Origin: Monosporascus cannonballus
Taxonomy: Eukaryota > Ascomycota > Sordariomycetes > Xylariales
Direction of reading: 5' to 3'
Length of the DNA stretch: 64,000 nucleotides
Assembly: GCA_004154925.1 (NCBI GenBank)
Contig: QJNS01000267.1
Location: 33,720-97,719, forward strand
A model generated the notes under the pieces. It saw only the letters and a program-made list of their open reading frames with translations, made no database searches and was not told the origin of the DNA. Numbering within the stretch: the first letter of the stretch is position 1; every line of letters starts with the position of its first letter. The translations under genes and the position numbers were made by a program. Shown piece after piece: positions 20,460 to 49,992 of the stretch.

Positions 20460-20681
20460 TCGGAAACGTAGCGTTAATAACGATTGCCTACGGCAGCGTC
20501 GTAATACGTATTATCGGAACGGCCGGCAAACGCGGAACGTAAGTAACCGAAGTAGGGTTCGGCGCGGCGTGCTTTACGCGTAGGGCGTTAGTAGGGCGGG
20601 CGAACGGGCGTTACGGGGGTTGCGGGCGTAGAAGTAGGCGCGGGCGTAAAAGTAGGCGCGGGCGCGGACGAGGCAGGAACG
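20460..20681. other. CpG-rich, CpA-depleted flank of the copia insertion
   Basis: A GC-rich stretch in which C survives almost only before G or C. By hand I find just two CpA steps in the last ~190 bp against a very large number of CpG, with frequent TpA. It carries an irregular tandem motif GTAGGCGCGGGCGTAAAA (about 20,629-20,665). This is what RIP would leave of a GC-rich sequence once CpA sites are exhausted. The last five bases (20,677-20,681, GAACG) are the copia target duplication; the sequence formerly continued at 32,985. Confidence 0.55.
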
Positions 20682-20844
20682 TGTCAGCTAGCAGGGGGTG
20701 CTCTAGCACCCTATATACGGAAGATTCCCTCTGATCGGAACAAATATGTTCCGGGACTAGATCACCTTAAAATGCAGTACGCGTTTTAAAACACCTGTAA
20801 CTAATTATTAATACATATATAACTAATATCCCTTATATCTAATA
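20682..20844 (+). repeat. Left (5') LTR of the copia element
   Basis: Starts TGTCAGCTAGCAGGGGGTGC and ends TATCTAATA, the RIP form of TATCTGACA. The outer ~85 bp are nearly unmutated and the inner ~73 bp are RIP-mutated; the right LTR shows the reverse. Confidence 0.92.
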
Positions 20845-22245
20845 ATTAAGAGTTTTATTAGTTTAATTAAGGCATATATTAATTAATTAATTATTAATAA
20901 AACGATATAAGCTATATATTAATTGTAATATTCGAAATATATTAATAATAATATTAATACTTACCGTTCCGTTAACATTTTCCGTCTTTTATAAAAAATC
21001 TAAAAATTAAAATCGTTTTAAAACCGAATTTTAATATAAAATGTATACGTTTAATATTTGGAATTATATCGATTTTAAATAAAATTATTAATAACTTATT
21101 AAATTTACAAAACTTAATGTAATTTCTTACATAAAAAAGCGAATTATTTATACGATACAAACTAATATTTTCAGCGGTTTTTCGTTTGTATTTATATTTT
21201 TCAAAAAACTGCTTAAAATATTAATTATACCAGTTACTTAACGAATACCTTTAAAATAATAATCGAAAGCAAATAAATCTATAATTAAAATGTTACGGCG
21301 TATATTTATAAAAATCGAAAATACAATACTTTTTATAAAAACATTAATGATTTTACGAAATAAATTTTAAAATCGGTATTTCCAGCGATTAAAAAACTGA
21401 TTTTTTTGGCTGGAAAAATATTACGAAAGTAATATGCTAGCTTAAGCGTACCCGATAAGGTATATAATAACAGATTCCTAATTAATATTTAACGGCAATA
21501 TCGCAAATAATTAAAATAAATATCGAAATTAATAAAGAAATTAAATAAATAAATCGTAAAATAATAACATATTATAGTCTAAGAATAATAATATAGTATT
21601 CCGGAAACGAAAATACCGATCGTATAAGTTAATAATTTATATATAATACTGGCTCTTATTATTAGGATTTGAAGGATTATTTTCCAAATTATAAAAAAAG
21701 CCGAAATTAATAAAAATATATTTATTTTTTTAAAAATAATGTTAATTTTATTAAAGTATTAAATTATAAAGAACATATTCGAATGGTTAAAAATATTAAG
21801 GTAACGCTTTTAAAATTTTACGAAATATCTGTAAATTTTTTTAATTAGGACGATTTTAATTAGGAAAGTTTTAAAAATATTAACCTTTAATCGCAGAGAG
21901 AAATTTTAAGCCGTAAACCGAAACGAGGTAACCGTAAAGGTTTTTATGCGGACAAAAATAATAATAAGTAAAAGCGTTAAAAATTAAATATATAAGTTAT
22001 CTAATATAAAACATATATAATTAATTATTATATATTATTTAATTATTATTATGCATTCTTTTAAAAAGAATTCCTTAAAAGGTTTCCGTTTTAACGATAA
22101 AATGGTAATATATATTTAAGGACGAATTTCCGCCGATTGACTTTTAATAGAAAAAATCGACTGTTTATCGAAAATTATGGAAAACTTTATTATATAAAAG
22201 ATAACTTAATTTTTTAAAAAGGTATAACAAATATTAATATATTTT

Positions 22246-24849
22246 TTGATTATTAATCAACGTAACGCCATAAATACTTTATTTGATTTTTTAAGGAATT
22301 TAGTTATTTTGGATTTAAGATTTACGATATATATTTTTAATTTAATTTATAAATTCCTAAATTTCAAATTTACTGGATACAATAACGAGATATACCTATG
22401 CAATAGTTTCGTCCTGATTAAGGGGTGCGGAAAAGTTAATATAATTTTTCGAAATTTTAACGGTATAAAAAAGTTCCGCTTATACGATATGGCTTATTAC
22501 AAAAATTTCGAATATAATATGATATTATTCCAGCAGTTTCTAAAAAAAAGGTATTAATAAAATAATAAAGGAATTAATAATTATATTCGAAACAAATATA
22601 ATTAGGTAATTATTACGTTAACAAATAATGTTAATTAACTCGATATTTAAAATATTAATATAATAATGTTTTATGTAGCTTTAATTATTTATAGACGAAA
22701 CGTTAATTTAAGAATAACAAAATTATTACGGACCGGTAATAATACTATATAGCATTTGAAATTAGGCCATTTAAGTCTCGAAATAATCGCTTAGTTATAA
22801 TCCTATACGAAAAGAATTTACCTAAAGGGTTTTATAACAATCGAATGCTAAATATACGAAAAGGCGAAAGTTAAAAACTTAATATGCTGTAAGCCAAAAA
22901 ACAATATCCTAATTAAGATAAAAGATCGTTATCGATTTTATAAACTTTGAAAAAAACCTTAAAGAATATAAATATATTATGTTTACTATCGATAGATATT
23001 TAAGTTTTATTTAGGATATTTATTTTAAGACCCGAAAATAAAATATATTAATTATAACGTTTTAATATTTTTTAGAAATCCTAAAAAATTAAAATAAAGT
23101 CCTTGTATATCTAAATAAATACGATAACGAAATCTTAAAAAAATATTAATTTCGAAATATGTTTAAATTAATTTTTTAATATTAAATTTAAACTTTTAAT
23201 ATTATATACCTAAATTCAGAGTCGGGATATAAAACTTTTAAAAAGTATAATAAAAGAAAAAGTAATTGCAATATAAAATAACATTAAATTATTTTTTTTC
23301 CTAATCGTATATATCCTTAAAGCGGCAATATATTTATATAACCGCGTTTTTAAAAATGCAGTTTTTTGGCAAAGTTTATACGAAATTTATTATATTTACC
23401 TGGCGTATTAAAATAGTGTTATAATATTTGATCGAAAGCTTTTATAAGCCCTTTTACAAATGTGCGGCTATATAACTTACGTTATAATAATTATCGTTAT
23501 AAAGAAAAAATAAAGATTTTAAAAATTAAATCTCAAAATATAAATTAATTATTTTATCGATTACCGATTTACAAATTTTTGCGAGATTTAAAACGCATTA
23601 ATTAATAAGGTTATTATTATTTGAAATATATAATTTAATAAAAAGCTTATTTTTTAAGGTAATATTAAAAATTTAAACGATACCCTTGTATATATTATAG
23701 AAAAAAGGTAATAAAAGTTATTCTGATAAATACATATACCTGATTAAAACGATAATTATTTAATTTATACACAAAAGAAAATATAACGCTAAATAAAATA
23801 CTTTAATTACCGAATAAACAAAAAATATAATTCCCGAAAGATAATAACGTAAATATGTACGGAATAAGGAAAAATAAGCTTGTTCGCAAAATATTAATAA
23901 TCTTTATATAATTATTATATTGAAATTATTTTTATTCCTTGAATTATTACCGTTATTAATTTTTACCTTAATAATTATTACGATTATTACGTTAACGAAA
24001 AAAAAATAGCTTTAGGTTTTTCTTATGGTGTTTAACTTAACAAAATAATAAAAAATAAAAATATTTTATGAATTATAAGTATAAGTTTTCTGTATATTAC
24101 GTATTAAGAAAATATTATTCGAAATAAATACAATATATTGAAAATTGTATTTAATATAAAACGTTTAACCCCTTTTATAAATACGTACGATAATCGGCCG
24201 GTAAATTACGAAAGTTTAAAGAAATTTATTATCCGAAGTACGAGTTATTTTGATCGGAAAAATAATAATACCTTAATATATAAAACAGTATTTAATTTAT
24301 AAAACCGGTTATATAAACGTAATTTATCGTTATTATCGTAAAGTTATAAAAAGCTAAATATATACCAGTTAAGAAAAATATTCGGTAAAGCCGAAAAAGT
24401 TTATTTATAAAACTATAAAAAATGCGATCTTAAAAGGCCGTTAATTAGTTTTTAGCTAAAAGGAAATAAGTTTTAAGGTAAATATAAGTATACGTTTATA
24501 AATTTAATAAGTATAAATTAGTTTTAAAAATATAAAACCCGTTTTATTATACAAAGTAATTAATAGCTTAAAATTATTTGTAACGATATATATATATATT
24601 TATTTTCGCTAAAAATCGTTTTTAACTTTAATCGTTATTACGGTTAATTTCGATATAAAATTTAAGTAATATAATGTTATAAATATCTTTATAAATAGTA
24701 ATTTATCTTATAAAATGTATATAAAAACCCCTTTAAGATATTTATAACGTAATAAGGTTTTTCTGATTAACAAAATATTATATGGATTAAGAGAGGTATT
24801 TTTGTTATAATAAAAGAATTTATTAAAATATTTAAAAATTGGGATTTAA
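22246..24849 (+). pseudogene. copia pol, first part: protease segment, integrase and start of reverse transcriptase
   Basis: A 103-codon open stretch (22,246-22,557) contains the segment around the copia protease, with an IKGCGKVNI block like the family's LKGYG-V-I, followed by a V/M-A-Y-x-x-x-F-x-x-N block. A GAG-pre-integrase block WHLKLGHLSLE... lies near 22,745-22,790, followed by an integrase start with LSIDI (about 22,980-23,000). The reverse transcriptase block LYGLREV is at about 24,778-24,800, and reading stops at ...NWDLI where the gypsy LTR begins. Several stop codons occur; the reading frame resumes at 31,654. It acted formerly in reverse transcription and integration of the element. 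Confidence 0.8.
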
Positions 24850-25220
24850 TATAACGGCTAGGGGGTTTAACCAACTATTAAACCTTAAGTCGACAAGTTT
24901 ATGTTAGCAGAAATATCGTAGGAATCTAAGTAATAAATATAGTAACGTATTACGTTTTATAATACCAAAAGTACTTTAGGTAACGATATCGTATTACAAG
25001 CTAAAGCTATTTAAATTATGGATATAATAAACGTATATATCTTGATTTTTTTTAATCCCATCGAACCCGGCTTTATAAGCTTTACGGTCGATTCTGTCGA
25101 GCTCGGCTTTATGGACTTTGCGGTCGATCTTATCGAACTATTACGTAACTCGACCTACATAACTTAGTTATTTCCTTATTGCGACCGTTTCCCGAGGCCG
25201 CAGCCTGTCAGGTTATAATA
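24850..25220 (-). repeat. 3' LTR of the nested gypsy element (left on the plus strand)
   Basis: Begins TATAACGGCTAGGGGGTTT (originally TGTGACGG) and ends GGTTATAATA (from GGTCATAACA). It is about 371 bp against 334 bp for its partner; the length difference lies in a variable block of CGA/GGCTTTA-type repeats at about 25,065-25,140. Confidence 0.88.
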
Positions 25221-25280
25221 CGATTCTTTTTTTCTATAATTCTCGTCCCGAAAATTTCTTTTCTTTTATAAGTCCTCTTT

Positions 25281-25870
25281 TTGTTATTATGTCGGGTCGT
25301 ATTAAAAAGCCGATTAATCGAAAAAACGAAAAAACGAAAGAATTTGCTTAAATTAATCACTTTTCGAACCCTAGATATGCCTGTATGTTCTTATTATGCT
25401 CGTCGCGAATTACCATCTTATCGTACTTTTTCGTCGGATTTCTCCAGGTACGAAAAGTACATAACGTAAAACCAAGGTTTTTGTAACGTTAACGGTTTTT
25501 TTACTTTTTAGCTTAAAAAGTTCGTTTCTAATTATCTTAAGGTTAAAACGGAACTTAAGAAAGCTAAGAAAAAAACGGAACAGGCTTAGGCCAAAGTTCG
25601 CCATTTTCGAAAATAAAAGAAATTATGGGCCGACGGTATAGTACATATGCTATTTCGGAGGCTTTGATCCCTAAAGGAATTGGATAAATTAAAACGTTAA
25701 GAAAACAGGCCGACATAGGGGCCGCTCAGGCCATATCGGCAAAGGCCGTAATTTCTTTCGACTAGTCCAACCTTGACTTTATCGATTGGTCGTCTACCGA
25801 TTAAGAGACCTTTAACCCTGTTAACCTCGGCGTTGCTGGTAAAAGTTTTTCAACAAACGTTAAGCGCTAA
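25281..25870 (+). pseudogene. Cysteine-rich ORF antisense to gypsy pol, adjacent to its LTR
   Basis: A plus-strand frame, opposite to the element's gag-pol, reads from about 25,281 with a 62-codon open start and then stops of RIP type. It shows a CSYYARRELPSY stretch followed by SSDFSRYEKY: cysteine positions C-x2-C...C...C-x2-C in which most cysteines have become tyrosine (TGC/TGT to TAC/TAT, a G to A change). A Lys/Glu-rich, probably coiled-coil segment follows (KTELKKAKKKTEQ), then an acidic and aromatic tail with WS and NPVNLGVAG. From memory, such accessory frames occur in some fungal gypsy elements. The function is unknown; a small zinc-binding protein is an inference. Confidence 0.55.
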
Positions 25871-26299
25871 TAAGGTTTTTAACAAATTCCTAGGTACTTT
25901 CGGAATCCGGATATTTTTTTTTATTTAATTAGGTATTAGGTAAATTCGTTTTATTTTTGTATATCGAAAAAAAAAACATTTTGCATATTTATTTATTTTT
26001 TACTTTATATCGTTTTATGCCGCATATATTTTAATTATATCTGCTATCAACTTAAATAAAAAACGTAAAAAATTAAGTAAAGTTTAATTTTTAATAAAAG
26101 TTCTAATTAAGAGTTCTTTTCTGAGATTTTCTTGGCGATTTTATATTGACCGATATATTTAAAATCGAATGTTTTATTAAATCTTTTTCTTTAAATATTT
26201 TTCGTAACGAAAAAAAGTATTTCCCCTTTTTCGAAAGTTAATCCTTTTAACGTTTTTTAATTATAATATTTGTTTATTTAATTTCGTACGAATTGTAAT

Positions 26300-28650
26300 C
26301 CCGTTTTTGTTTTTTTAATTTAGTTATCGTAATTGTTTTAACGTAAGGATTATTTTGATATTAATTAAACCGTCGTTACGTACTTCTTTGTAAACTTTTG
26401 AAATAAAACCAAAATTTGGGTTTGTTAATATTATTTTAATATTTTCGTAATAACTAATATTATAAATTAGTTAAGTAATAAATAGCTTTTTAATCTAATT
26501 ATTTTTTTCGTAATTAATATAATATCGAAAATAAATTTTTAAAATGTAGTTCGTTCGTTTTATTTATTTATTTATCTCAGGTTTAAATACGTTAGATAAC
26601 TTATAATTTAAGCCGATCTATGATATTAAGCTTTATCAAAATTTAAATGCAAATATTAATTTTTATATAAAATCAGTGTTATTAATAATTTATATATATT
26701 AAAGATGTATTTAAAGAAAGTATATACCATTTATTCGGCGTTTACGTTCTTATAATAAAGTAAAAAATAGTAAAATTTCGTAAATCGATCAACGATTACG
26801 AAAATGCTATCGTAATATATTTCTATAGCTAATTTTGTAACATAAAAAGTTTGGTATTAAAATCGAATTTAATTAGATATTATGGTTGCTTTGTAATTAA
26901 TAATAACTGTAATTTTCCGTATAGCTTATATCGTCGGGTTTTTGTTCTGGCGCAAATATCGTATTATTATATATTTTTTTATATCGTTAATTTTATTTTA
27001 AAAAAGAATATGTACGTTAAAACCGTTGTAGGGTTTTATGGATCCCTGGATATCCGTATAACTAATATCTATGTATTTTTTGTACTAAACCCTTTTGGTA
27101 TTTTTCTGGAATTTGTATTTTATTTATTTTTTGGTTTTCTAGAAAACTGTTATTATATTACTGGATTTTCTGATATATATCCAAGGGTATTGCCCGAATT
27201 ATCGCAATCTGTTACGGGCGTAAATGTCGTTTTGTAACAATGTCGAAAATTATATAGCTAATTTTGACTAGTTTTTTTTTCGAAGTTTAGTTCTTTGCTT
27301 AAGGTATTTACTTTGCCATTTTTTAAGTTTTTCTTCTAGATAATAACGAAGTCGAAGTTTGCCAATTTCTTTATGTATCTTAATTATCGTTTTATAAGCT
27401 CCTTGGTCGTAGTAAATCGGATAAGGTTTTAATAATCTATATAAACCTTAATTTAGTACAAATTTCTCTTTAGGAAATACCTGAATTTTCGAAATGCCAT
27501 AATAATGGCCATAAATTCCTTATTTGGAATACAGTAATTAAATTCGGTTTTTTTAACTTATATAAGAAAAATATAATAAGGTACAGTTTGCCGTAATTAT
27601 TTCGCTGTCCGATTATTGCGTTTGATATGTAATCCGAAATATCGATTTTTAGCTTAACGGGGCGGTTAGAATCGTACATAATTCATACTGGTTCGTTAAT
27701 AATTGCATCCTTAATATCCTGAAATGCTTTTTTCGTTTTTGGCGTTTATTTGAACTTTTTTATTTTTTTCGTAAGGTTTGTTAGGAATATAATTATTTTG
27801 TTAAAGTTCCGGATAAATTTCCTGTAATAGTTGGCGAATCCAAAAAATACCTGTATTTTCTTAACTGTCGTTAACATTTGCTATTTTGTAATTATAGCGA
27901 TTTTCTTAGAATTTATCTTAATATGTCCTAGGGTAATAATATGTTCTAGATATTTTATTTCTTGCTTGTGGAATTAACTTTTTTTTTATATTAATAAATA
28001 ACTTTGCGTCCTGTAAAGCTTAAAAAGCTTTATAAATATATTTTGCGTATGCTTTTTCTGATTTCGAAAAAATAAAAATGTTATCGAAATAGCAAATAAC
28101 AAAAATATCGAGATATTTTCGTAATATATGGTTTACCATTCGTTAGAAGGTTATTGGTACGTTCGTAAATCCTATTGGCATAACCAAATACTTAAACAGT
28201 CCGTATTTCGTTCTGAAAGCTGTTTTTTATTCGTATCTTTTTTTAATCCTGATAAAATTATATTTATTTTTAAGATCGAATATTATAAACCATTTAATTC
28301 CATAAAGTCGGTTTTTTATTTTTGTAATTAAGGATAATAATATTTTATTTTTAATAATAATATCGTTTAATTATTAATAATTAACTATAAGTCGTAATTT
28401 TTTATTTTCTTTCGGTACGAAAAATATTGGGTATTTTGCTAGCGATTTCGAAAATTAAATCCATCTTTGTTATAGCCGGTTTTCTAGGTGTTCTTTAAGA
28501 GTACGTAATTTATTTTCGTTAAGGTTATATATTGGGTAAAATTTCGGCAAAGATCTTTTTTTGAAAATTATTTTATGGTTTTATTTGTTATATTTTAATA
28601 ATTTCGTATCGAATTCCTTTTCGAAAATTTATTCGTATTTATCGTATTAT
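26300..28650 (-). pseudogene. gypsy pol: reverse transcriptase, RNase H and integrase remnants
   Basis: On the minus strand the reverse transcriptase core reads YGLFKYLVMPIGFTNVP... then RKYLDIFVICYFDN (about 28,050-28,215). YFDN replaces the catalytic Y-x-D-D box, so even the active site is mutated. RNase H follows in a 69-codon open stretch (27,470-27,679) with YDSNRPVKLKIDISDYISNA and GQRNNYGKLY, matching the gypsy RNase H start. The integrase core shows DSIFVIVDRFTKFYYF (about 26,765-26,815). The order RT-RH-IN confirms Ty3/gypsy. Stops interrupt every domain. Confidence 0.85.
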
Positions 28651-30239
28651 AATGGCATATTAATTAAATTTTCTAATCTTTAGGGCTATTGTTATTTTAG
28701 ATCGTTATTTAGTTATCTTAATTTCTCTTTTATAATAATAATAAGATGTCGTATTTTTGGATATCCGTTTTTTTCTTGTATTTTATTTCTTTGTATAATA
28801 AGGTTTTTATCGTATCCTTATACCTGCATTCGTCGTTATTATCGATTAAGTATTAAGATTTTAATTTTTTTGGTTTATTAATAAGAAATAAAATGAACTT
28901 TACTTAGCTAATTTTTCCGTTAATCAAAATTTCGTATTAGCGTATTTATGGTAATCCTAAGATCATATCGTAATTTCCGAATAAAACGATATCGAAATTA
29001 ACTATCTGGTATCGTCCTTAAACAAAAATCCCGAAATAATTAATTTTGCGTATAATTTTTCCGTTATCGTAAGCAAATTCCTAACTTTCGACATTCGTTA
29101 TTATATAGGGTTTTAACTTATATCTCTATAGCAATCTAAACTTATTAACCATATCTGGTATAATGTAATTCCCGCCCAGAGCTCCGTAATCCACCATTGC
29201 GATATATTAATGCGTTTCGATTTATATATCTAAGGTAATAAGGTTATTAACGGCTTTTATCGTTGAGTTTAAACCCTTTCGTAAAAGTTCTTTTTAATTC
29301 CCCCGGGTGTCGTTATTCTGCAGCTTTTTTATAGGCAACCTTTTTTTAACTTTTGTTCGAATTTGTTAAACTTTATCTGTATTTTTTTATTCACCGCGTT
29401 AAACTGCTATATTTATTATTGTTGCCGGCGTATTGTTCCGTTAAACTATATTAGCTATTCTTAATTCTGCTATAATTCCTTTTTATTAAATAAATTGTTT
29501 TCTTATATTTGCGATTATATTCTATTATATGTCGTCCTAACTGTTATTCCAGAGATTTTCTGTAAATTAACGTATTTTTTCTTAATGGCCTTTTTTTATC
29601 AAAATTTATAATAAATACCAATTTAAAATAAAAATCTGTAATAATTTTCTTGCAATGGTTTTTTACTGTGCATTAAATCAACTCCTTTTCCGTTTGGTAA
29701 TTATATTATCCATAATAACAAAAAAGGTTTTCTTGCAGGTATTATTTTCCTTCGGGCCAGTTTTCTATGTCGGCTAACTATTACACTTTCCCGGGTGCTA
29801 TGAATCGAAAATATCGATATTATTATTTATCGTTTTTGTTATTTCTCGTACGGTTTGGGAAATCGAATTTCTTACAATATATGCAGGTAATCCGTTCGTA
29901 AATATGTTACTTCCATTTTTCGTAATTAGGATATTCTCGTCGTCGACAATATATGGCATGCATTTTGCCGTATCGGTCAAGTATTCTAAGACAGATTTTT
30001 TTATCCAATTTTGGTATTTGCATAACCATCCTTATAATGCTTTTTATGGTATTTGCAATGCTTATTAAGCCAGCTTTTTTAGCTTTTCGTATTCTTTGCT
30101 ATACCTTTCGCTATAGGGGACCTGGTATGTACTTAGATTGAATTATATTAATAAACTTATTTTCATTTTTTTAATTGTTTCTAGATTATCCTCCAGATAT
30201 TAGTTTCTAGTTATTTTGTCGTAGTTTTTTAGACGAAGG

Positions 30240-31310
30240 ATATTTGTAAATTTTATGTCCTTTTTTTCCGCAATTGTAATATTCGATCTGGCTCCAGTTT
30301 TTTTTGTGCATAACATTTAGTTCTATGGGCCTTGGTTCCCTATCGTGAAAAGTATTATTGCGTCGAAAAGCTTTGGTATTGGCCGTCTATCGGAGTTTGT
30401 TCTTATTTTTTTCTTTAATATCTTTAATACATTATACGTATTGTCAATCGTCGATCTTAATTATTTTAGCGATATAATCCGATAAATAATCGGGCCGATT
30501 AAGTTTAAAAAGTTTTTTTTGTATTTTTTAAACCGTCGAGAAACTTAGTTATTAATGCTTTTTATTTTTAATTCAATTTAGCGGTTAATTAAATTAATAT
30601 GCTGCCGTAACTAGATGCCGATTTTTTCTGTCGTAATTGCTGGATTTGCATTTTGGCTTTAATTTTTTCGTTTATTATTTCGAAAGTTTTCGTTAATGCT
30701 TATTCGAATTATTCGTAATCGTCGTAAATTCGTATTACTTCCGAGTTTCGTTTTTCGATTAATAAAGTAACGTATTTTCTTATAACGGGCTTAAACTAAA
30801 TAGCCCTATTTCCGGTAAATCGTCCGATTTCAAATCTAATTCGTATAATGGGCGTAATAAGTTAAATAAGAAAATACTTGAAATATATTCGGCATTAAAT
30901 TAAGAACAGTTATAACTTAATTAAGGTTTAATCGAAAAGTTTTGGCTTAAAAGGTTTAAGGATTTTTTTTAATTCTTTAATAAAATTTTACTGGATAATT
31001 TGATTTGTTCAAAAGGGTTTCCCGGTTTCGAAAGCTTTTTTTTTCCTTAAGCTTTTTATAGGCGGCTTAAAAGGATATTATAAAATTATAGTTATCTCTT
31101 TTAAGTTAAATAATACGTTCGTTTATGGTATCCAGGCGTCGAAGGACTTTTTTCCAAAAAAGGCGAAATTACTTTTTTCCTTTTCGGATTCCATTTTAAT
31201 ATCCGAATAATTAAGGACTTGGTAAATAAGCTATTCGGGCTGCTTGTTAATAAACATAACGTTAATCGATATTGCTTAGAATTTAACGGTACTATTAAAT
31301 AAAAGCTTGC
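30240..31310 (-). pseudogene. gypsy gag remnant with mutated CCHC zinc knuckle
   Basis: Minus-strand translation at about 30,246-30,283 gives YYNCGKKGHKIYKY: the C-x2-C-x4-H-x4-C nucleic-acid-binding knuckle with the first and last cysteines changed to tyrosine, again G to A on the coding strand. Upstream to the 5' LTR at 31,315 the capsid region is not readable. A short open stretch farther down (29,798-29,980) belongs to the gag-protease interval. Confidence 0.7.
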
Positions 31311-31314
31311 AACA

Positions 31315-31648
31315 TATAACGGTTAAAAGGTTTAACCAACTATTAAACCTTAAGTTAACGGGTTTATATTAATAGAAATGTCGTAAAAATCTATGTAATA
31401 AATATAGTAACGTATTACGTTTCGTAATATTAAGGATACTTTAAGTAACGATATTATATTACAAGCTGAAATTATTTAAACTATGGAAATAATAAGCGTA
31501 TATATTTTGATTTTTTTAATCCTGTCGAGCCCGGCTCTATGGGCTCTATGGTCGATCCTGTCGAGCCATCACGTGACTCGACCCACATGGCTTAGTCATT
31601 TCCCTGTTGCGACCGTTTTCCGAGGCCGTAGCCTGTCAGGTCATAACA
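31315..31648 (-). repeat. 5' LTR of the nested gypsy element (right on the plus strand)
   Basis: Begins TATAACGGTTAAAAGG and ends GTCAGGTCATAACA. Its outer ~130 bp are the best-preserved LTR tail in the window and keep CACGTGACTCGACCCACATG. The inner head is more mutated than the same positions of the partner LTR at 24,850. Confidence 0.9.
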
Positions 31649-31653
31649 TTTAA

Positions 31654-32700
31654 TTCCGTTTTTTACGAACTTTATTATTTTATTTACTAATGGCTACTTA
31701 TTTTTTTTGTAGATAATATTATTATAATACATCGCAAAAAAGATTAAAATGTCGTAAATTATTTAATATAACAAATATAAAAACCTTATATCTTAATAAA
31801 AAAGATAAGGATTTATAATAGTTTTTCGATATTAAAATAATTAAAAATCAATTTAATAAGAAAATCTAATTATTTTAATCTAATTTTATAAATAAGTTAA
31901 TTAGCCTAATACTTAAAAAAGTTTAAATAATCTTTTAAAGATACTCATAACTACTATTAAGCTATTGCCGAATTCTGATCTAGTTTATCCAGACTTTATT
32001 AATAAATATTGAAAAAAATCGGTTTTATTTTTTCTATAATAATTAATACGTAATTCGATATATTTTTTATAATATCCCAATTGGCTCGATTTAATATGAA
32101 CCTTACTAACGCATGTTATAAAGTTGCCGAACGAATTATATTATATTTAATCGGCATTAAAACTTTAACGTTATAATTTAAGAGTAAAAATTCATTAAAT
32201 GCTTAAAATAATATTTCTTTGCAAATAATATTATAAACCGAAAAAGTTTTAAATTTACGTTATGAAATTATTCGGAAAAATAATAAAATAACGGGCGAAT
32301 AAATAAAATATAATAATTACTTTTAGAATAAATATAAAATTATTTTTTAATGTAAATTATAAATTTTTTTAAAATTTTCGATTACTAAAAAAATTAAAAA
32401 TTACCTTAAATATGAACCAATTAAATATATAATATAATAATTAATAAATTATTCAACTTATTAACGTTAATTTTATTTTATTAATAACGAAATTACGTTA
32501 TATAAATATATATAATTTTTAATTATAATAAATCGTAAAAAAGGATTTAATTAAAATTAATTATATATTTACGGGTAATATATTAATTAACGTTTTAACG
32601 AAAATCTTTTTACGTAAATTTTTTAAGTATTTGAAAAAATAATTAAAATTAATAAATATTACGGAAGCTTTCGATTAATGGAAAAATATTTTATAAAAGA
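31654..32700 (+). pseudogene. copia pol, second part: reverse transcriptase end and RNase H
   Basis: Reading resumes exactly after the duplicated TTTAA: ...NWDLI at 24,849 continues as PFFTNFIILFTNGYLFF. Next come VDNIIIIHRKKD (the second half of the Y/F-V-D-D region), then QLARFNMNLTNACYK and ILYLIGIKTL (about 32,080-32,175). The RNase H signature is ANNIINRKSFK (about 32,225-32,260) and the end KLRYINIYN...TKIFLRKFFKYL runs to about 32,640. This collinearity shows that the two pol halves are one element. Stops are frequent. Confidence 0.85.
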
Positions 32701-32816
32701 TTTTAAAAAAATTAATTAATTAAAAAGATTAAATTATAAAAAAAGAAAATATATAATTATGGCTTTAGGAGTTATAATAATTAATATCGTCAATGGTTTA
32801 AGGTATTAAGAGAGCA

Positions 32817-32979
32817 TGTTAATTAACAAGGGGTGTTTTAATATCCTATGAACGGAAGATTCCCTTTGATCGGAATATATATGTTCCGGGATTAGATTAC
32901 TTTAAAGTGCAGTGCGCGTTCTAGAACACCTGTAACTAGTCATCAATACACACACAACTGATGTCCCTTATATCTGACA
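32817..32979 (+). repeat. Right (3') LTR of the copia element
   Basis: 163 bp, the same length as the left LTR. Its head TGTTAATTAACAAGGGGTG is the RIP product of the left LTR's intact head, while its tail, which includes CAATACACACACAACTG and ends CTGACA, is spared. A purine-rich AAGAGAGCA just upstream is a plausible polypurine tract. It is followed by the target duplication GAACG. Confidence 0.92.
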
Positions 32980-33110
32980 GAACGTCCTATTCGCGCTTGG
33001 CGTCGGCCGCGGCGTTTGCGGCAGCAGCGGCGGTAGCAGCGTCGGCGGCGGCGGCATTTACGCGTGTTACGCGCGTTACGCAAATGCGAACGGCCGTAAT
33101 ACCTTAAGTT
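32980..33110. other. GC-rich right flank of the copia insertion
   Basis: Starts with the GAACG duplication, then a GCN/GGC-rich low-complexity stretch (GCAGCAGCGGCGGTAGCAGC, about 33,019-33,038). It formerly adjoined 20,460-20,681. It keeps several CpA steps and so is less RIP-mutated than the left flank. No gene is evident. Confidence 0.5.
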
Positions 33111-33686: not shown

Positions 33687-34037
33687 ATGCTTTATAGCAT
33701 CCGGAAAAACCTTATTCCGGCTCTCCCACAATATATAGAGAACTTCCTAGCTACCGCTCCTTGGAGCTTAATTCTAGTAAGACAATTATCATTTCCCACA
33801 CTCTATGCAACCTTTTCTCGCGATCAGCCTAACTGTGACAAAGGGACATCCAGCCCTCCTTCAGTTGGCTCGGGTGAAACACAGTCGACAGGGACAGCGG
33901 ATATCACGGTGCCGAGCTTGAGGTCGTCGGGCCGGGGAGATATACAGGAAGGCAGCAGCTCAAAGGATAAGGGCAAGGGGAAAATGGAGGGGATGAGGGA
34001 CAAGTGGAATGGTTTTACGAAAAGGAAGAAAAAATGA
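33687..34037 (+). CDS. Small hypothetical protein (116 aa) or gene remnant
   Basis: A single ATG-started open frame at the very edge of the gene island. The N-terminal half is moderately hydrophobic (residues about 18-42). The C-terminal half is Ser/Gly-rich and ends in a strongly basic Lys-rich tail (KDKGKGKMEG ... FTKRKKK). I recognise no family. A good splice donor-like AAG|GTGAGC lies just after the stop, so this may be the end of a longer gene broken by mutation or an unrelated chance frame. It sits 10 bp before the ankyrin-like remnant, possibly part of the same former gene. Confidence 0.25.
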   Translation: MLYSIRKNLIPALPQYIENFLATAPWSLILVRQLSFPTLYATFSRDQPNCDKGTSSPPSVGSGETQSTGTADITVPSLRSSGRGDIQEGSSSKDKGKGKMEGMRDKWNGFTKRKKK

Positions 34038-34046
34038 AGGTGAGCC

Positions 34047-34482
34047 TTGCATATTAAAGCTTCCTATTCACGAAATCGGCTTCATGAAGCATGCCTAGCG
34101 AGGTCTATACGCGAGGCTGTCCCAACTGCGGCATACCCACACAAACGGGAGGAGGCCTTCTCCCTAGGATATGCAGCTGATACTTGGGATGTGTGGAAGG
34201 CCACAGGACTGTTTCAGAGCAGAACTCGCCCCCTCGCCGCGATTCCTCGGTAACTCCACACCGTTGATAAGGGCAGACATAGCCAGAAAGAAGCTCTTCG
34301 TATTTTGCTCGACCATGGCGCCCCATGCAGGTTTTCACACTTTCCTCGGTTGAATCATATCCCACGTGCGGCGAGACGCAGCCTACACCACCGCATCGTT
34401 CATCCGAAGGGGTCCAAAGTGGAGCCCGCTGATTCTGTGGCAGTTGAGAATATGGAGATCGAGTGGCTAAAGGGATTCTAGT
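34047..34482 (+). pseudogene. Ankyrin-repeat-like remnant with an in-frame stop
   Basis: The plus frame from 34,047 contains NRLHEACLARSIREAV, which resembles the first helix of an ankyrin repeat, and after an in-frame TAA (34,251-34,253) continues with KEALRILLDHGAPC, resembling the second helix (x-x-L-L-L-x-H-G-A-x-x). The frame then stays open to a TAG at 34,480-34,482. TAA is what CAA gives by a RIP-type C to T change. Alternatively GTAACT at the same place could be a donor, but the only acceptor nearby would leave an intron under 40 bp. No convincing start codon is present. Ankyrin proteins bind other proteins; nothing more specific can be said. Confidence 0.35.
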
Positions 34483-35361
34483 TGTTTATTGTACGCTCAC
34501 AGGTGTCCTAAGCGGTGGCTGGGAAGACTCCTCGTTAACAGGGCTGGAGGTTTTGTAAATGCGGAAAGGTAGAGCTGCGCTAGCAGGCTTGAGAATGATG
34601 CCTGACAATAACGTAAAAGCTTGTATATGTAATATTATTGTTACGGTACGTAGGGCCCGCCGTGATCGAAGCAGATTCCCATGTCCACGTTTTAACGTAA
34701 TACGCTTGCGAACGAAGTGGACGAGGGTTATTATGTAGAAAATTTCCCTCCCCTTAGAACCCATTGATCTCGGTAAGGCAACCTAGGAGATGGTTTCCTA
34801 ATTGGGAAGTGGAGGGTCTGCTTCCGAACCCCTTGTGGTTGTACCCATAATTTCCCCAGGATTTCGACAGCACCGACTTCTCCACCGCAGACTCCGTGCC
34901 AGGAATTCCCACATGACCGGACCTGATTTCTCTGCTCCAGAGTGCAGGGTGATTGGTGCGGGTTACGACCTCCCTGGACTTCTTGAAGCCGTCTCTCTCC
35001 AACTCTGGCTATTACGTCAAGGACCTATATAGCCTTATCATACGGTGTGCTGAGGCACGAGAAGCTACCCCAACACGAGGCTTTTCGTCGCACCCGATTC
35101 GGGCGGAAGACAGAAACGCGACTGTCACGGATTCGCCATGTGACTCGGTATTAGATTTGTCCGGCCCTAAGCGGTCGCCGCATTGAAACGGCCCATGTGC
35201 GGATGCGTCTCCAAGACTACATGCATATATAAGGTCAACACTATGTACGGCAAGAGGTTGAGGATTTCCCCTGACGATCTCCTCCCACGAACGTTCAGCT
35301 CCGGGGAAAGATCTACACCACTTCATTGGAGGACACACAGCAACCCCTGTAAACCCCCAAG
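34483..35361 (+). promoter_or_regulatory. Intergenic region and likely promoter of the GH93-like gene
   Basis: Ordinary composition and no credible ORF. The proximal part carries a TATA box (35,226-35,233) about 130 bp before the start codon. Confidence 0.4.
35226..35233 (+). promoter_or_regulatory. TATA box of the GH93-like gene
   Basis: TATATAAG, 129 bp upstream of the ATG at 35,362, in the right orientation and at a distance compatible with a 5' leader of roughly 100 nt. Confidence 0.5.
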
Positions 35362-36665
35362 ATGCAGCTCCTACGAGCCACCATCGCCGGCCTCGCCGGC
35401 CTCTGCACGCTCCACCAAGCCGCCGCGACCCCAACCCCCGTCGAGGTCCGACAGACGGCGACGGTGACGGACCTGACGATCTTCTCGCCGCCGTCGAACG
35501 CCGGGTGGGTGGACCCGCGGGTGCTGTACGCGCGGGCCGTGCACCTGCGGTCCTCGGGCGACCTGCTCGCGACGTGGGAGAACTACTCGCCGGAGCCGCC
35601 GCAGGTGCACTTCCCCATCTACCGGTCCTCGGACGGCGGCGTGTCGTGGCGCGAGATCGGCCGCGTCCGCGATACCGTGAACGACTGGGGCCTGCGCTAC
35701 CAGCCCTTCCTGTACGAGCTGCCGAGCCGCATCGGCCGCTTCCCCGCCGGCACCCTGCTCCTCGCCGGCAACAGCATCCCCACCGACCTCAGCAAGACCA
35801 AGATCGACATCTACGCGAGCACCGACGGCGGCGTCAACTGGTCGTTCGTGAGCAGCGTCGCCAGCGGGGGGGAGGCCCGCCCGAATAACGGCTTGACCCC
35901 GGTTTGGGAACCTTTCTTGATGTGAGTGTTACACGTTCTATCTCGGCCGGCGGCGGCTAGTTTCCTCGCGGTTTCTGCGGAAATCTCGAGTCCGCAATTC
36001 TTGTTGGACTACGAGCTACATAGGGCATTGCGACAGGCTTTCAGGTGCTAACCAGGTTATTCGTCAACAGGGTCTACAACAACCAACTCATCTGCTACTA
36101 CGCGGACCAGCGCGACAAGAGGTTCGGCCAGAAGCTGTCGCACCAGACCACGAGGGACCTGCTGACCTGGAGCAACCCCGTGGACGACGTGAACGACACG
36201 TCGAACTTCCAGGCGCGGCCGGGCATGCCGGTCGTGGCCGCGCTGCCCAACGGCGAGTACATCTTCGTCTACGAGGTGTGCGGCACGGACGGGTGCCGCG
36301 TCCACTACCGGATGACGCGGGACCCGCTGAACGTGCTGTCGGCGCGGGGCCACACCCTCGTGTCGGACAAGGGCCAGCGCCCCGTGAGCTCGCCCTACGT
36401 CGTTTGGTCGAGCGTCGGCGGGCCCGACGGCACCATCGTGGTCAGCAGCGGCCGCGACCAGATCTTCGTCAACCGCAGGCTGGGCGATCCGGCCGCCTGG
36501 ACGGAGCACGAAGTCCCGCAGCCGAGGGCGTACTCGCGCGGCCTCACGCTGTTCAACAACGACGACAATAAGCTGTTGCTCATCGGGGCCGGGTGGCTGC
36601 CGCCGAGCAGCACGAACAGGGTCAGCGTGAGCGTCATTGATTTGAAAGCCACCATCGGGGCATGA
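35362..36665 (+). CDS. Secreted GH93-like exo-alpha-1,5-L-arabinanase (sialidase fold)
   Basis: Two exons, 35,362-35,921 and 36,071-36,665, give 384 aa. The intron (35,922-36,070) has donor GTGAGT, branch CTAAC at 36,048 and acceptor CAACAG. The N-terminus MQLLRATIAGLAGLCTLHQAAA is a signal peptide, so the enzyme is probably exported. The body has Asp-box-like repeats typical of six-bladed propeller sialidases (YRSSDGGVSW, YASTDGGVNW). GH93 enzymes release arabinobiose from plant arabinan. The Glu pair proposed to be catalytic in GH93 maps to E183 (WEPF, next to the splice site) and E255 (FVYEVCG), 72 residues apart, the same spacing I recall for Fusarium Arb93A (E170/E242). A conserved-looking AYSRGL with Tyr341 lies farther on. 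The length fits the family. Other BNR-repeat hydrolases are the main alternative. Confidence 0.85.
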
Positions 36666-37533
36666 TGTATGGTTAGGGACAACCCAGCTGAGGAGAGCAT
36701 TGCCAAGTAATAATTCAATATACTAGCTAACAAAGTCTTGAACCCATGCCGCCCGGATAGTTTTCCCATCCCTCGCACCGTCATAGTATTCGGTTAAACT
36801 CCAGTTAGGATGGTTAAAACTTCCTATCATATCTGATGTCACAACAAGCTAAATTGAGTTGTATGTCAGCACTTTAGCATGTGATCATCCAGATGAAGGC
36901 ATAATATCGTATACAGATTCGTATGAATGCGCCGGGTCGAGCATCCCTACGTCACGGCATAGGATGCTTTGACTTTCGCCTATGGGTACCCCTTTCTGGA
37001 TGCCGCACTCTGTAATTCGCGCCGGGTAGTTTGTAAGACGGGATAAGGGCGTGGAGGAAGTCGGGACGAACAGAGGGCGACACGTAATTTAGCAGAAGCT
37101 GCTGCATATGAAGATAAATTCTAAGCAAGGAGTCTCGGAATACTTCTCCGTGGTTGAACTTAGCACTGCTTCCCGACATCCCATTAGGACCCAACCGTCG
37201 TACGGGCATAGAAGAGCACCCGTTTATGGAACACTTTTAGCCAAGAGCCCTTACGACTTCGAGTCAGCCTGCATATCCATCAAAGGCACATCTATGCTAC
37301 CAGTACTGTAAATTCTGTAATCTATAAGAGACGGCTCCATGCACCGGTCACCTGTAATAGTACGTATAATACGGCAGTCAATTCGTACATGCCTTCGATG
37401 TTATAATCCATCAACACAACATAACTCCTTGAAGGCCCCTGAATATCAAAACCAAACCAATCCCGACAAACCATTCACCGCTTACCCTTCCTCAGGCCCC
37501 TTAACCGGACAACCTACCCCAAACCTATCATAG
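36666..37533. other. Convergent intergenic region
   Basis: Lies between the 3' ends of the GH93-like gene (+) and the oxidoreductase (-). It should contain both terminators. I see no credible gene; the short open frames here have no coding character. Confidence 0.4.
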
Positions 37534-38601
37534 TTACTCCGAGACTTTAACAAGGATCTTGCCCTTCGCGTGCCCCTTCTTCAGCTTCCTGTACGCCTCG
37601 GGCGCGTCCTTATACGCGAACGTCTCGTCTATGACGGCCTTCACCTTGCCCTCCGCCATCCACTCGGCGATGCGCGCGAAATCCTCGTGCTTGTTCTTCG
37701 ACAGCATGCACTGGTATTTGTGTCGGCTGCCGCCGAGGAACGACGGCAGCAGGGCGCGAGACGTTATCGTGCCTATGTCGCCGAGCGTGAAGCCGCCGGC
37801 GACCTGGACGAACTTTCCGCCCGGGGCAAGGAAGTCGTCGGCGGCCTTGTAGAGGTTGTGGGGGGAGCCGACGCTGTCGACGACGAGGGCGAACGTATCC
37901 CCGTCCCTCGCCCGCGCGCGCAGGACCTCGCACACGTCCTGGGTCTTGTAGTCGATGACCTCGTCGGCGCCGAGGCTCCTGCAGAGGTCCGCGTTGGCCG
38001 CCGAGCAGCTGGCCACGACGGAGCAGCCCAGCGCCTTGGCGATCTGGATGCTGAACGTGCCGGTGCCGCCGCTGCCGCCGTTGACGAAGACGCGGTCGCC
38101 CGGCCTCGCGTTCGGCACGATGGACTGGTAGGCCGTGAGGCCCGCGGTGCCGATGGCGGCGGCCTCGTCGAGCCCCACGCCCTCGGGTACCCTGGCCACC
38201 CCAGCGCGCCGCGCGACCAAGTACTCGCCGAGGGCGCCGAAGCGGCCCGAGTCGATGCGCCCGAACACGCGGTCGCCGGGCGCGTACCCCTCGATCCGGG
38301 AGTCGGCGACGGTGCCGGCGAAGTCGAGCGCCGGCGACGCCGGGACCGGGATCACGGCGCGCGCCGCGAGGCCCAGCTCCGAGAGCTTGTAGTCGACCGG
38401 GTTGAGCGCCGCGTAGTGCACCTTCACGAGGACCTCGTCCTTAGCATTGGGAGATGTAGGGAAGGGCGGCTGCGGCGCCGCGTCGCTGAGCGACAGGCTG
38501 TTCTCGAGCCCGTTCTGCACGCTGCTGGAGAGCCAGGCCCGCATGGACTTGGAGCCTCCCTTGTTGGCGGGGGCTGCTTCCTGTTCGCTTCTGAAGCTCA
38601 T
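37534..38601 (-). CDS. Zinc-independent medium-chain dehydrogenase/reductase (quinone oxidoreductase-like)
   Basis: Intronless, 355 aa. The N-terminal GroES-like domain (about residues 55-140) has VHYAALNPVDYKL, followed by the P-x-x-x-x-D-F-A-G-T-V block and GDRVFG. The Rossmann domain carries the dinucleotide loop NGGSGGTG (residues 174-181) and YKTQDV after the second strand. The zinc-ligand cysteines of alcohol dehydrogenases are missing, which places it with NADPH-dependent quinone or enone reductases (Yim1/RTN4IP1-like group). Met20 (SMRAWL) is an equally plausible start, because residues 1-19 are low-complexity. The substrate is unknown. Cytosolic or mitochondrial location cannot be told from the sequence. 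The gene converges on the GH93-like gene. Confidence 0.85.
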   Translation of the reverse strand: MSFRSEQEAAPANKGGSKSMRAWLSSSVQNGLENSLSLSDAAPQPPFPTSPNAKDEVLVKVHYAALNPVDYKLSELGLAARAVIPVPASPALDFAGTVADSRIEGYAPGDRVFGRIDSGRFGALGEYLVARRAGVARVPEGVGLDEAAAIGTAGLTAYQSIVPNARPGDRVFVNGGSGGTGTFSIQIAKALGCSVVASCSAANADLCRSLGADEVIDYKTQDVCEVLRARARDGDTFALVVDSVGSPHNLYKAADDFLAPGGKFVQVAGGFTLGDIGTITSRALLPSFLGGSRHKYQCMLSKNKHEDFARIAEWMAEGKVKAVIDETFAYKDAPEAYRKLKKGHAKGKILVKVSE

Positions 38602-39648
38602 GTCGGTTCGGCGTTATTATGGGTGTCGCCTTTGAAATTGGTTTCTGGTGAGTTGCAGTAATTGGAAACAAATAAATTCTTTTTAGAAGTGGAATGGATG
38701 TCCCGGTCGTATATACGCTTAAGGGCCGCTATTACAATGGGGTTCCGTGGAGTTCCGTGATATCAAATCATATATGTCACGGTGAATTAGCAAGTCTCGG
38801 CCTATCGCCTATTGGTGGGGCGCTTCCAAAAGTACAACAATTAACAGGTTCCACATGTGAACCCTTCTCCATATATCTAGGCAATGTCCTTTACGAGTGT
38901 ACCGATTAAAAATCAGATTGGGGAAGTTCGTTTCGAATCTAATATGGCCATAATTTTACTATAAGCACAGGAATCACCGGCTAGTTCAATGCATAAGCCA
39001 GGATGACAAATACTGGTCAATCAACCCGTAGCGACTTGTTACTTGCTTATGGTTGAGCATTAACTCTCCTTTAAGAACGTAATACCTGTAGCATGTTAAG
39101 CCGAACTATAAGGAAACTAGGTCACTCCAGATTTCTTGTTTATCACAGCTAGCAAAGTGATTTGTACGACGTTACCATTCCTTCAAAAGCTGCCCCGAAG
39201 CTAGATACATACATGCCACGCAATAGAAGCTATGTACTTGCGCCCCGACTCTTCGCCTTGTAGTGTATAGTAAAGCACGCTTGGCTCTCCTCCCTTTCTC
39301 ATACCATCCGACTCCTTGAAGCGAACGTCTAGGGTATCTATCTAGGACTCTGCCTATTGGCAGCTCTCCATATCGGTTCGACGATTGTAAACCACCAGTC
39401 CGAGACGCGCCAAAATGCCACAGAACACTCTTCGCTGTCAAAGGGCTGACTGAATGTGACGGTGATGCTCGCCGTATGACAAGGATAAAAGGATACTAGG
39501 AATGAAGCAGATTTTGTCGGATCGCGATGCTGTGGCCAGGGCGGACCAATTCTAAACCTTTGTATGGAAATAGGACACCCTGGAGCAGACAACCCGCTCT
39601 ATATAAAGTTCTTCAGGAAACAATAAAATTAGTATAAGTCTCCTGCTT
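38602..39648. other. Intergenic region between the oxidoreductase start and the HMG-CoA reductase end
   Basis: About 1 kb of slightly AT-rich, non-coding looking DNA. It must hold the oxidoreductase promoter and the HMG-CoA reductase 3' UTR. No gene or RNA is recognised. Confidence 0.4.
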
Positions 39649-42600: not shown

Positions 42601-43250
42601 TAACCCCTCGCGACCGTCATGATCCACATCTTATGTTCTTGGTTGCCTAGCTCCGTCACGCGCGTCTCCTGACCAGGGACATCGTTGGGGATCTCCTGGG
42701 CGGCGGCGAGGAATTCGGGGGCTTCGCTGTACTTGACAGCAAAGGCCAGGGCGCTGTCCTGGGAGTAGGCGGCCAAGGGGTTCGACGTCGAGGGCAGATG
42801 GGCGATGGAGAGATTCCGGGGCAGGGGGACAATATGGGGCTGAGGGGCCGTCTGGGGGGCATCTTCGGAGGATTCCGGGAAGACCAGCGTCACCAGGGCC
42901 TGGTGGTCGGCGTCCCTGGGTATCTTGGCGTCGGCATCAATCTCCTGCCACCTCCATTGGGTATCGGGGCTCGCCAGTAAGCTCCGGCTGCCTCCCGTCA
43001 AAGAAGACCAGTCTGCGTTCCTCTCGCTCCTAGTGACATCGAGGATGCTTTCCTTGAAGACGCCAATGTAGGAAGTGCTGGCTAACAAAGCCACGATGCA
43101 TATTGTGTGAATCGGGTGTCGGCAGGCTTTGGTCGAGAAGAATTGTAGAATCGGAGTGATCGCCTTGTTCAACTTCGAAGGCGGAGCTGCCGCGCTAGTC
43201 GGCTGCTCGCCGCGAAAGCGGGAGGGCAGAAAGGAGGAAGCTGTGTTCAT
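39649..43250 (-). CDS. HMG1: HMG-CoA reductase (class I, sterol-sensing)
   Basis: Two exons, 43,250-40,078 and 40,021-39,649, give 1,181 aa. The 56-bp intron (40,022-40,077) has donor GTAAGT, branch GCTAAT and acceptor TTGCAG, and restores [26 protein letters not shown]. The enzyme makes mevalonate from HMG-CoA with two NADPH, the committed step toward sterols and isoprenoids, in the ER membrane. The first membrane helix is at about 46-66 and a multi-helix sterol-sensing region at about 240-430; a linker leads to the catalytic domain from about residue 700. Visible motifs are [20 protein letters not shown] (E832), DAMGMNM, DKK (K966), GQD (D1042), GTIGGG and AHMAHNRS (H1138). E832, K966, D1042 and H1138 match the known catalytic set, and S1144 sits where animal enzymes carry the AMPK-regulated serine. 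The length is normal and nothing is broken. Confidence 0.97.
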
Positions 43251-45600: not shown

Positions 45601-46393
45601 TTAGGAACTTTGGCCACTGGGGATAATGCTATGCGGTTTCGACAACCTTGAAGCGGTCCCGAGCCTGGAGACTTCCCAATCCTGCATGCTGACAACCTTG
45701 GCACCAGCTTCCTCGATTGCCTTCCGACAGGCGGGCCATGCTGTCGCATCGACCGCTCTGGTTCCCTCTTCGACGACATACGTCCTGAACCCCTCCTTCG
45801 CGGCGTCGGCTGCCGCGAACTTGACGCAGTAATCCCCAGCCAGCCCGACAACGTACACGTCGGTGACCCGGTGCTCTCTCAAGATGGTCGCCAGGCCGCT
45901 ATCGTAAACGCGGGGCGACTTGAAAGGGTCGTAGAAGGGGCTGTACATCTCGACCCGGGAGTCGGTGCCCTTCTCGATGATCTTATCGACCTGCCCGACG
46001 TTCAGCTCCGGAATCAACTCCGCCCCCCGCGTGCCCTGCACGCAGTGCACCGGCCACAGGCGCGACTCCTCAGTCTCGGCCGCGTTGTGCGGGTTGACGA
46101 TCTTGACGAAGTCCGCGTACGGCTGCTTTCCCTCGTGGTTGGCGGCGAACGAGATGTGGTCAGCCGGATGCCAGTCCTTGGTTGCGATCCGAATGACGAA
46201 CGGCTCGGCTAACAATTGATTGGCAACCGGAACGACGTCGCGGCCGTTGGGCACTGCAAGCGAACCATTCTGTTATTGGTTAGCCACGTTTGTCTTTGCC
46301 CATGTATTGTGGGCTCCGGACGACTCCTACAGGGGGGCAAAAATCCTCTTGCAGGTCTACCACCAACAAGGCCGGTCTAAAATTCCCGGGCAT
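45601..46393 (-). CDS. PNC1: Nicotinamidase (isochorismatase-like hydrolase, Pnc1 type)
   Basis: Two exons, 46,393-46,331 and 46,269-45,601, give 243 aa. The 61-bp intron (46,270-46,330; donor GTAGGA, branch GCTAACC, acceptor AACAG) splits the conserved FCPP|NGSLAVPNGRD. It hydrolyses nicotinamide to nicotinate and ammonia, the first step of NAD salvage, and relieves nicotinamide inhibition of sirtuins. The catalytic triad is visible: D13 (VVDLQEDF), K121 (IIEKGTD) and C169 (LAGDYCVK), numbers close to those of yeast Pnc1 (D8, K122, C167). The metal-binding set D53, H55 and H59 lies in KDWHPADH. The first exon codes for only 21 residues and would be missed by single-exon calling. The length is slightly above yeast Pnc1 because of a C-terminal extension. 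Probably cytosolic or peroxisomal. Confidence 0.93.
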
Positions 46394-49932: not shown

Positions 49933-49992
49933 CGTACCCCCAAAGAGACGCTGGAATAGTTTGGATATGGAGCACAAAACTAAACTACCTTC

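What the first reader, a model, noticed from the sequence alone, without database searches (positions are those of the whole stretch)
20682..32979. Mirror-image RIP damage in the two copia LTRs: outer halves spared, inner halves saturated
The two 163-bp LTRs were identical at insertion. In my hand alignment of the first ~85 bp, about 15 differences are transitions with the right (inner) copy mutated and only about one has the left copy mutated. From about position 90 to the end, about 14 transitions have the left (inner) copy mutated and none the right. The switch falls between 20,766 and 20,772. RIP therefore acted on the element as a unit and faded over roughly 85-90 bp at each outer edge, where homology to other copies ends. 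The merged outer halves preserve the pre-RIP LTR almost unchanged. I have not seen LTR pairs used as a ruler for the edge reach of RIP.
Basis: partly seen in the sequence, partly recalled or inferred. Interest (0 to 1): 0.8.

Follow-up and report, generated by a model that had tools for sequence, protein, structure and literature searches.

The report
RIP spares the ends of repeats
In this fungal genome the repeat-mutating defence called RIP weakens over roughly the last 120-160 bases of mobile elements, and the two end repeats of each element, identical when it inserted, record that fade as opposite damage patterns.

Summary
Observation confirmed. Polarised with 11 solo LTRs, the window's copia LTR pair has 15 C>T/G>A sites mutated only in the right copy (last at 20,766) and 14 only in the left copy (first at 20,772). 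It is not a one-off: of 39 other copies found by an internal query, 24 gave both LTRs and a matching TSD, and all 24 show it (429 inner-copy: 77 outer-copy mutations); over all 31 scored pairs it is 31 of 31. Non-RIP changes show no asymmetry (39/3861 inner, 45/3861 outer).

A second family, nested in this element, with LTRs of about 370 bp, resolves it. Its 7 TSD-matched pairs are asymmetric in the outer 120 bp at each side (240 inner: 29 outer) and neutral in the central 130 bp (71:66). Fits place the plateau about 120-160 bp from the edge and reject 80 bp and a fixed fraction of the LTR.

Best explanation: RIP acts on the element as a unit and loses efficiency where homology to other copies ends. 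The homology step is inferred. Published Z. tritici data point the other way at coarse scale.

The parts
20677..20681 (.). left target-site duplication of the copia element (GAACG)
   Evidence: sequence; match to right copy
20682..20844 (+). 5' (left) LTR of the copia element, 163 bp; outer part spared, inner part mutated
   Evidence: alignment; polarised sites; per-half CpA counts
20845..24849 (+). copia internal region, left part (with the copia-side TSD copy TTTAA of the nested insertion at 24845-24849)
   Evidence: 36-39 other places in the genome match parts of it; weak Pol_BBD match in 22228-22554, below Pfam cut-off
24850..25220 (+). 5' LTR (371 bp) of the nested second element
   Evidence: sequence; direct repeat; family alignment
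25221..31314 (+). internal region of the nested second element (class not assigned)
   Evidence: searches 32 and 33 each scored 40 of 2873 and 1484 candidates
31315..31648 (+). 3' LTR (334 bp, with an internal deletion) of the nested second element
   Evidence: sequence; alignment
31649..31653 (.). right TSD copy (TTTAA) of the nested element
   Evidence: sequence
31654..32816 (+). copia internal region, right part
   Evidence: 39 other places; RVT_2 matches lie in or next to the same stretch in copies on C588, C205 and C15
32817..32979 (+). 3' (right) LTR of the copia element, 163 bp; inner (left) part mutated, outer part spared
32980..32984 (.). right target-site duplication of the copia element (GAACG)
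   Evidence: sequence

Best explanation
The element inserted with two identical LTRs and was then mutated by RIP (C to T on either strand, CpA favoured) as one unit. The mutation hazard is low at the element's outer ends and rises inward, reaching its plateau about 120-160 bp from the edge, so each LTR is damaged mainly on its inner side and the two copies look like mirror images. Shown: post-insertion origin, RIP-type spectrum, recurrence in two families, a fade measured in base pairs rather than as a fraction of the LTR. [quoted passage not shown]
For: Window: 15 right-only, 14 left-only, one switch. 24 of 24 internally found TSD-matched copia pairs, 429:77; 31 of 31 over all scored pairs, 586:99. 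RIP-type changes 540/1846 inner vs 188/1846 outer; all other changes 39/3861 vs 45/3861. Nested family, 7 TSD-matched pairs, 5'-mutated:3'-mutated = 5:61 (1-60), 11:49 (61-120), 71:66 (121-250), 73:8 (251-310), 57:5 (311-370) (TSDs). Ramp end: unbiased nested set best 140 bp, bootstrap 120-160; full nested set best 160, bootstrap 140-300; copia 120-300, not bounded above. Base-pair scale beats LTR-fraction scale by 36 log units jointly. Genome encodes a DIM-2-like (DNA_methylase + BAH + DUF7893) and a compact 733-aa DNA_methylase protein. N. crassa RIP needs about 155 bp of perfect homology in closely spaced repeats and integrates over hundreds of bp (PMC4858203, introduction read).
Against: Per-half CpA counts are less uniform on the right: inner exceeds outer in 19 of 24 3' LTRs (24 of 24 5' LTRs), because site hotspots sit near positions 125-147. 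The binned fit is not smooth: hazard 0.64 at 31-45 bp, then 0.23 at 46-60 bp in the nested family. In Z. tritici, de novo RIP mutations were reported as most frequent in the most distal windows of LTR elements (PMC10294615 passages). No sparing is seen at the copia/nested-element junction, explicable if the copia was RIPed before the nested insertion, but not support. Flank dependence is inconsistent: outer damage tracks low flank GC at 5' ends (rho -0.45, p 0.006) but not at 3' ends (rho -0.11, p 0.44).
Confidence: 0.8

Rival explanations
1. Chromatin or methylation edge: heterochromatin, or a positioned nucleosome, thins at the junction with flanking DNA, and the deaminating/methylating machinery follows chromatin rather than homology.
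For: The 120-160 bp scale is close to one nucleosome (general knowledge). 5' outer damage correlates with flank base composition.
Against: The nested family sits in AT-rich flanks (GC 0.22-0.32 within 125 bp) yet shows the same edge sparing; the correlation is absent at 3' ends.
Confidence: 0.15
2. Recombination or gene conversion between LTRs or copies made mosaic LTRs, with a crossover near the middle.
For: A single switch point near mid-LTR in the window pair.
Against: TSDs match in 24 of 27 two-LTR copies from the internal query; a conversion tract would carry all substitution classes, but non-RIP changes are symmetric; in ~370-bp LTRs there is a neutral central zone instead of a mid-LTR switch.
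Confidence: 0.02
3. The differences predate insertion.
For: None found.
Against: Reverse transcription makes the two LTRs of a new copy identical (general knowledge). Inner ends of 5' LTRs and inner ends of 3' LTRs carry the damage in independent copies with different flanks.
Confidence: 0.01
4. Ends are repeated less often than the middle because partner copies are truncated, so the ends meet fewer partners.
For: 12 of 39 copia copies lack a recognisable LTR at one or both expected places.
Against: LTR sequence is not rarer: LTR queries gave 488 and 470 first-look candidates, internal queries 369 and 357. The gradient runs within the LTR over about 150 bp.
Confidence: 0.05

Closest known systems
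Repeat-induced point mutation (RIP), Neurospora crassa type
   Same: C>T on both strands with CpA favoured, in dispersed repeats, in a genome with candidate DIM-2-like and compact DNA methyltransferases.
   Different: Here a within-repeat edge profile is resolved from natural LTR pairs. CpT is also frequently hit (0.21-0.22 against 0.25-0.38 for CpA).
Minimum-homology threshold of RIP (about 155 bp trigger, 220 bp substantial, mutation number tracking length from 220 to 520 bp; PMC4858203 introduction)
   Same: Same length scale: the fitted loss of about 48-64 bp per edge (unbiased nested set) gives roughly 95-130 bp lost per repeat with two ends.
   Different: That is an experimental threshold for total homology in closely spaced repeats in another species; this is a positional profile in old natural copies.
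Distribution of de novo RIP along TEs in Zymoseptoria tritici (PMC10294615, passages)
   Same: Asks where in a TE RIP mutations fall; also reports little spill into flanks.
   Different: Reports the opposite: the most distal 5% of TE length held 35% of the de novo mutations within TEs, mainly in LTR elements. Windows averaged 71 bp and left and right LTRs were not polarised against each other in the passages seen.
RIP leakage into flanking DNA in N. crassa (PMC7296669, passages)
   Same: RIP falls across repeat borders: 1.81e-5 per site within duplicates, 1.29e-6 in 400-bp flanks.
   Different: Describes the outside of the border; the present data describe the inside.
crapaud LTR retrotransposon, Podospora anserina (PMC10787394, passages)
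   Same: LTR variation confined to one half of the LTR in a RIP fungus.
   Different: There the variation is in the 5' half of both LTRs (subfamily structure), not mirror-image between the two LTRs.

Membership tests
RIP damage | C>T / G>A transitions dominate | tested here: met
   24 copia pairs: 728 RIP-type changes (540 inner + 188 outer) against 84 of all other kinds
RIP damage | CpA context favoured | tested here: met
   mutated fraction CA 0.384/0.245, CT 0.205/0.223, CC 0.086/0.123, CG 0.038/0.080 (5'/3' LTRs); the preference over CT is weak in 3' LTRs
RIP damage | RID/Masc1-family methyltransferase encoded | tested here: inconclusive
   a 733-aa single-ORF protein with DNA_methylase only (L175) and a DIM-2-like protein (L174); no phylogeny was made
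RIP damage | premeiotic, in the sexual cycle | not testable with these tools
   needs crosses
copia LTR retrotransposon | RVT_2 reverse transcriptase | tested here: met
   RVT_2 matches in or next to family copies on C588 (8.2e-13), C205 (1.2e-7) and C15 (6.3e-4, below cut-off); not found in the window copy itself, which carries many stops
copia LTR retrotransposon | paired LTRs with 5-bp TSD | tested here: met
   window TSD GAACG; 24 of 27 internally found pairs match with at most one mismatch
gypsy (for the nested element) | gypsy-type RT/RNase H in family copies | tested here: inconclusive
   five stop-free pieces gave no relevant Pfam match; a PF17919 search listed 150 of 3547 candidates and none was assigned to this family

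The most novel reading that the evidence does not exclude
RIP has a fixed end-blind zone: a site is mutated at full rate only with about 150 bp of homologous sequence on each side, so every repeat loses the equivalent of roughly 50-65 bp per end. This one length scale would account for both the natural edge fade and the experimental minimum of about 155 bp for triggering RIP, and any LTR family in a RIP fungus could be used to measure it.
Probability: 0.4. Interest if true: 0.75.

Novelty: new variant of a known kind. Interest (0 to 1): 0.6.

Why it matters
How RIP senses homology without recombination is an open question studied with engineered repeats. Natural LTR pairs give an internal control: same site, same element, two distances from the edge. 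They yield a positional response curve from existing assemblies without crosses. If the scale is conserved it constrains the sensing mechanism and the shortest repeat that RIP can see, and predicts which parts of elements stay readable. It also warns that LTR divergence in RIP fungi is not a clock, since most differences are positional RIP damage. The conflict with the Z. tritici report makes it directly testable.

Tried and rejected
Reach from the copia pair alone: rejected, because only the ratio of hazards at d and 164-d is identified; the copia profile has no upper bound.

Solo LTRs as proof that short repeats escape RIP: rejected. The 11 copia solo LTRs have only 8 RIP-type changes in 858 C/G sites, but also only 2 other changes, so they are probably young; they were also picked by similarity. 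In the nested family 10 solo-like LTRs are less mutated than either LTR class in the middle, but they were chosen by similarity to one solo LTR and only 1 of 10 has an exact 5-bp TSD. They were not fitted as observations, though they took part in choosing columns.

Sparing on the flank side of the junction: flank GC falls from about 0.42 to 0.32 away from copia ends, but less so at solo LTRs and not in the nested family; more likely target choice.

Nested junction as a natural new edge: sites within 75 bp, 28 of 48 mutated against 29.6 expected from 17 other copies; within 150 bp, 54 of 94 against 61.1. Uninformative if RIP came first. My third notebook entry misstates these numbers; those given here are.

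Load and strand: best ramp end 160 (low load) and 120 (high load), 160 (C sites) and 120 (G sites), without intervals; not pursued.

First unpaired binning of the nested family was noisy, because 5' and 3' sets came from different elements; replaced by a fit with element load and by true pairs. Of the 7 true pairs, 5 came from an LTR query, 1 from internal queries (C41) and 1 is the window.

Rows dropped: of 39 internally found copia copies, 12 lacked one or both LTRs and 3 had unmatched TSDs; these 3 also show inner over outer (16:2, 28:6, 27:6). Three further pairs came from LTR queries and were kept out of the 24. One search scored 40 of 357 candidates; other searches were capped likewise.
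Full report
What was checked. The copia LTRs at 20,682-20,844 and 32,817-32,979 align end to end inside a shared TSD. The window lies in an 88.8-Mb assembly of 618 contigs. Solo LTRs of the family in the same genome give the pre-RIP state. Against them the window pair has 15 right-only and 14 left-only RIP-type sites with one switch between 20,766 and 20,772.

Is it general? To avoid choosing copies by the pattern itself, copies were taken from an internal query (40 of 357 candidates scored, 39 besides the window) and the expected LTR places were fetched (plus loci). Both LTRs were found in 27 of 39; 24 of 27 have TSDs differing at no more than one base. In all 24, among sites where one LTR is mutated and the other is not, the copy nearer the element's inside is the mutated one more often: 429 against 77. 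With the 3 TSD-unmatched pairs, 3 pairs from LTR queries and the window it is 31 of 31, 586 against 99. By halves, CpA sites in 5' LTRs are mutated 22/192 outer and 208/407 inner; in 3' LTRs 65/192 inner and 82/407 outer. Inner exceeds outer in 24 of 24 5' LTRs but in 19 of 24 3' LTRs, since hotspots near positions 125-147 are hit even at the outer end.

Specificity. RIP-type changes: 540/1846 inner, 188/1846 outer. All other changes: 39/3861 inner, 45/3861 outer, Fisher p 0.58. So alignment error, age and conversion of whole tracts do not make the asymmetry. In 27 pairs with TSDs differing at no more than one base, the TSD copies differ at 3 of 51 G/C sites, all C/T.

At LTR position x the left copy is x from its edge and the right copy 164-x. 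Whichever rising curve describes RIP, the two cross at 82. The switch at 85-91 is therefore forced by symmetry and says nothing of the reach. A longer LTR is needed.

The longer LTR is in the window. The copia is interrupted by a second LTR element at 24,850-31,648 (LTRs 371 and 334 bp, TSD TTTAA), a large family (4518, 2873 and 1484 first-look candidates, 40 scored in each). Seven TSD-matched pairs give 5'-mutated: 3'-mutated counts of 5:61, 11:49, 71:66, 73:8 and 57:5 in positions 1-60, 61-120, 121-250, 251-310 and 311-370. The outer 120 bp at each side are asymmetric and the middle is neutral: a fade in base pairs, with no mid-LTR switch.

Fits. A complementary log-log model with site and element-load terms gave relative hazard 0.15 at 1-10 bp, 0.47, 0.43, 0.64, 0.23, 0.31 and 0.49 in the bins up to 100 bp, 0.74 at 101-125 and 1.13 at 126-160 bp in the nested family; the middle bins are not monotonic, and subfamily polymorphism without an outgroup is the likely cause. 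A linear ramp fits best at 140 bp (20 + 20 internally found LTRs, bootstrap 120-160) and 160 bp (full set, bootstrap 140-300); copia gives 120-300, unbounded above. A ramp end of 80 bp costs 15.5 log units in copia and 31.4 and 72.7 in the nested sets. A common base-pair scale beats a common LTR-fraction scale by 36 log units. The implied loss is 48-64 bp per edge (unbiased nested set).

Mechanism. Shown: RIP-type damage after insertion, weaker towards both outer ends, on a base-pair scale, in two families. Inferred: the end of homology is the cause. N. crassa work reports that about 155 bp of perfect homology can trigger RIP in closely spaced repeats, that 220 bp gives substantial RIP, that mutation number then follows length up to 520 bp, and that homology is integrated over hundreds of base pairs (PMC4858203, introduction read in full; passages). 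A loss of about 50-65 bp at each of two ends would give a threshold near that size; this joins two species and is a hypothesis. A chromatin edge remains possible.

Against and open. Z. tritici de novo mutations were most frequent in the most distal windows of LTR elements (PMC10294615, passages), opposite to the present result; that study used 71-bp mean windows, few mutations and another species. No sparing appears at the copia/nested junction (28 of 48 sites mutated within 75 bp, 29.6 expected). Solo LTRs look young and cannot test the short-repeat prediction.

In print? Ten library searches and passages of six papers showed no use of LTR pairs to measure the edge reach of RIP. The library lacks most subscription journals, including the 2014 study that PMC4858203 builds on, so a published edge profile may well exist.

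Verdict. A real, general and specific edge effect of RIP.

Noticed in passing
window 24850-31648: Nested second LTR element (LTRs 371/334 bp, TSD TTTAA) inside the copia; class not assigned. It became the key comparison.
   Followed up: yes
window 1-33900 and 52000-58000 against 34000-51000: Sharp AT-rich (GC 0.15-0.35) and GC-rich (0.44-0.67) compartments; the GC-rich part encodes an HMG-CoA reductase (40077-43250, -) and other enzymes.
   Followed up: partly
window 58399-61869: Adjacent ORFs resembling parts of a leucyl-tRNA synthetase (tRNA-synt_1, Anticodon_1, RBD_LARS1), probably one gene with an intron or frame break.
   Followed up: no
window 20560-20681: GC-rich, CpA-poor repetitive flank directly left of the copia; copia flanks in general are GC-richer next to the element than 200 bp away (0.42 to 0.32), not so in the nested family: possible target preference.
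   Followed up: partly
L049 (82-245), L070 (93-254): Diverged related LTR family lying directly beside two copia LTRs in opposite orientation.
   Followed up: no
L174 (G000:C592), L175 (G000:C35): DIM-2-like (DNA_methylase, BAH, DUF7893) and compact 733-aa DNA methyltransferase genes, candidate RIP machinery.
   Followed up: partly
G000:C190, C79, C400: LTRs of the nested family in close inverted pairs, one nearly whole and one about 200 bp.
   Followed up: no
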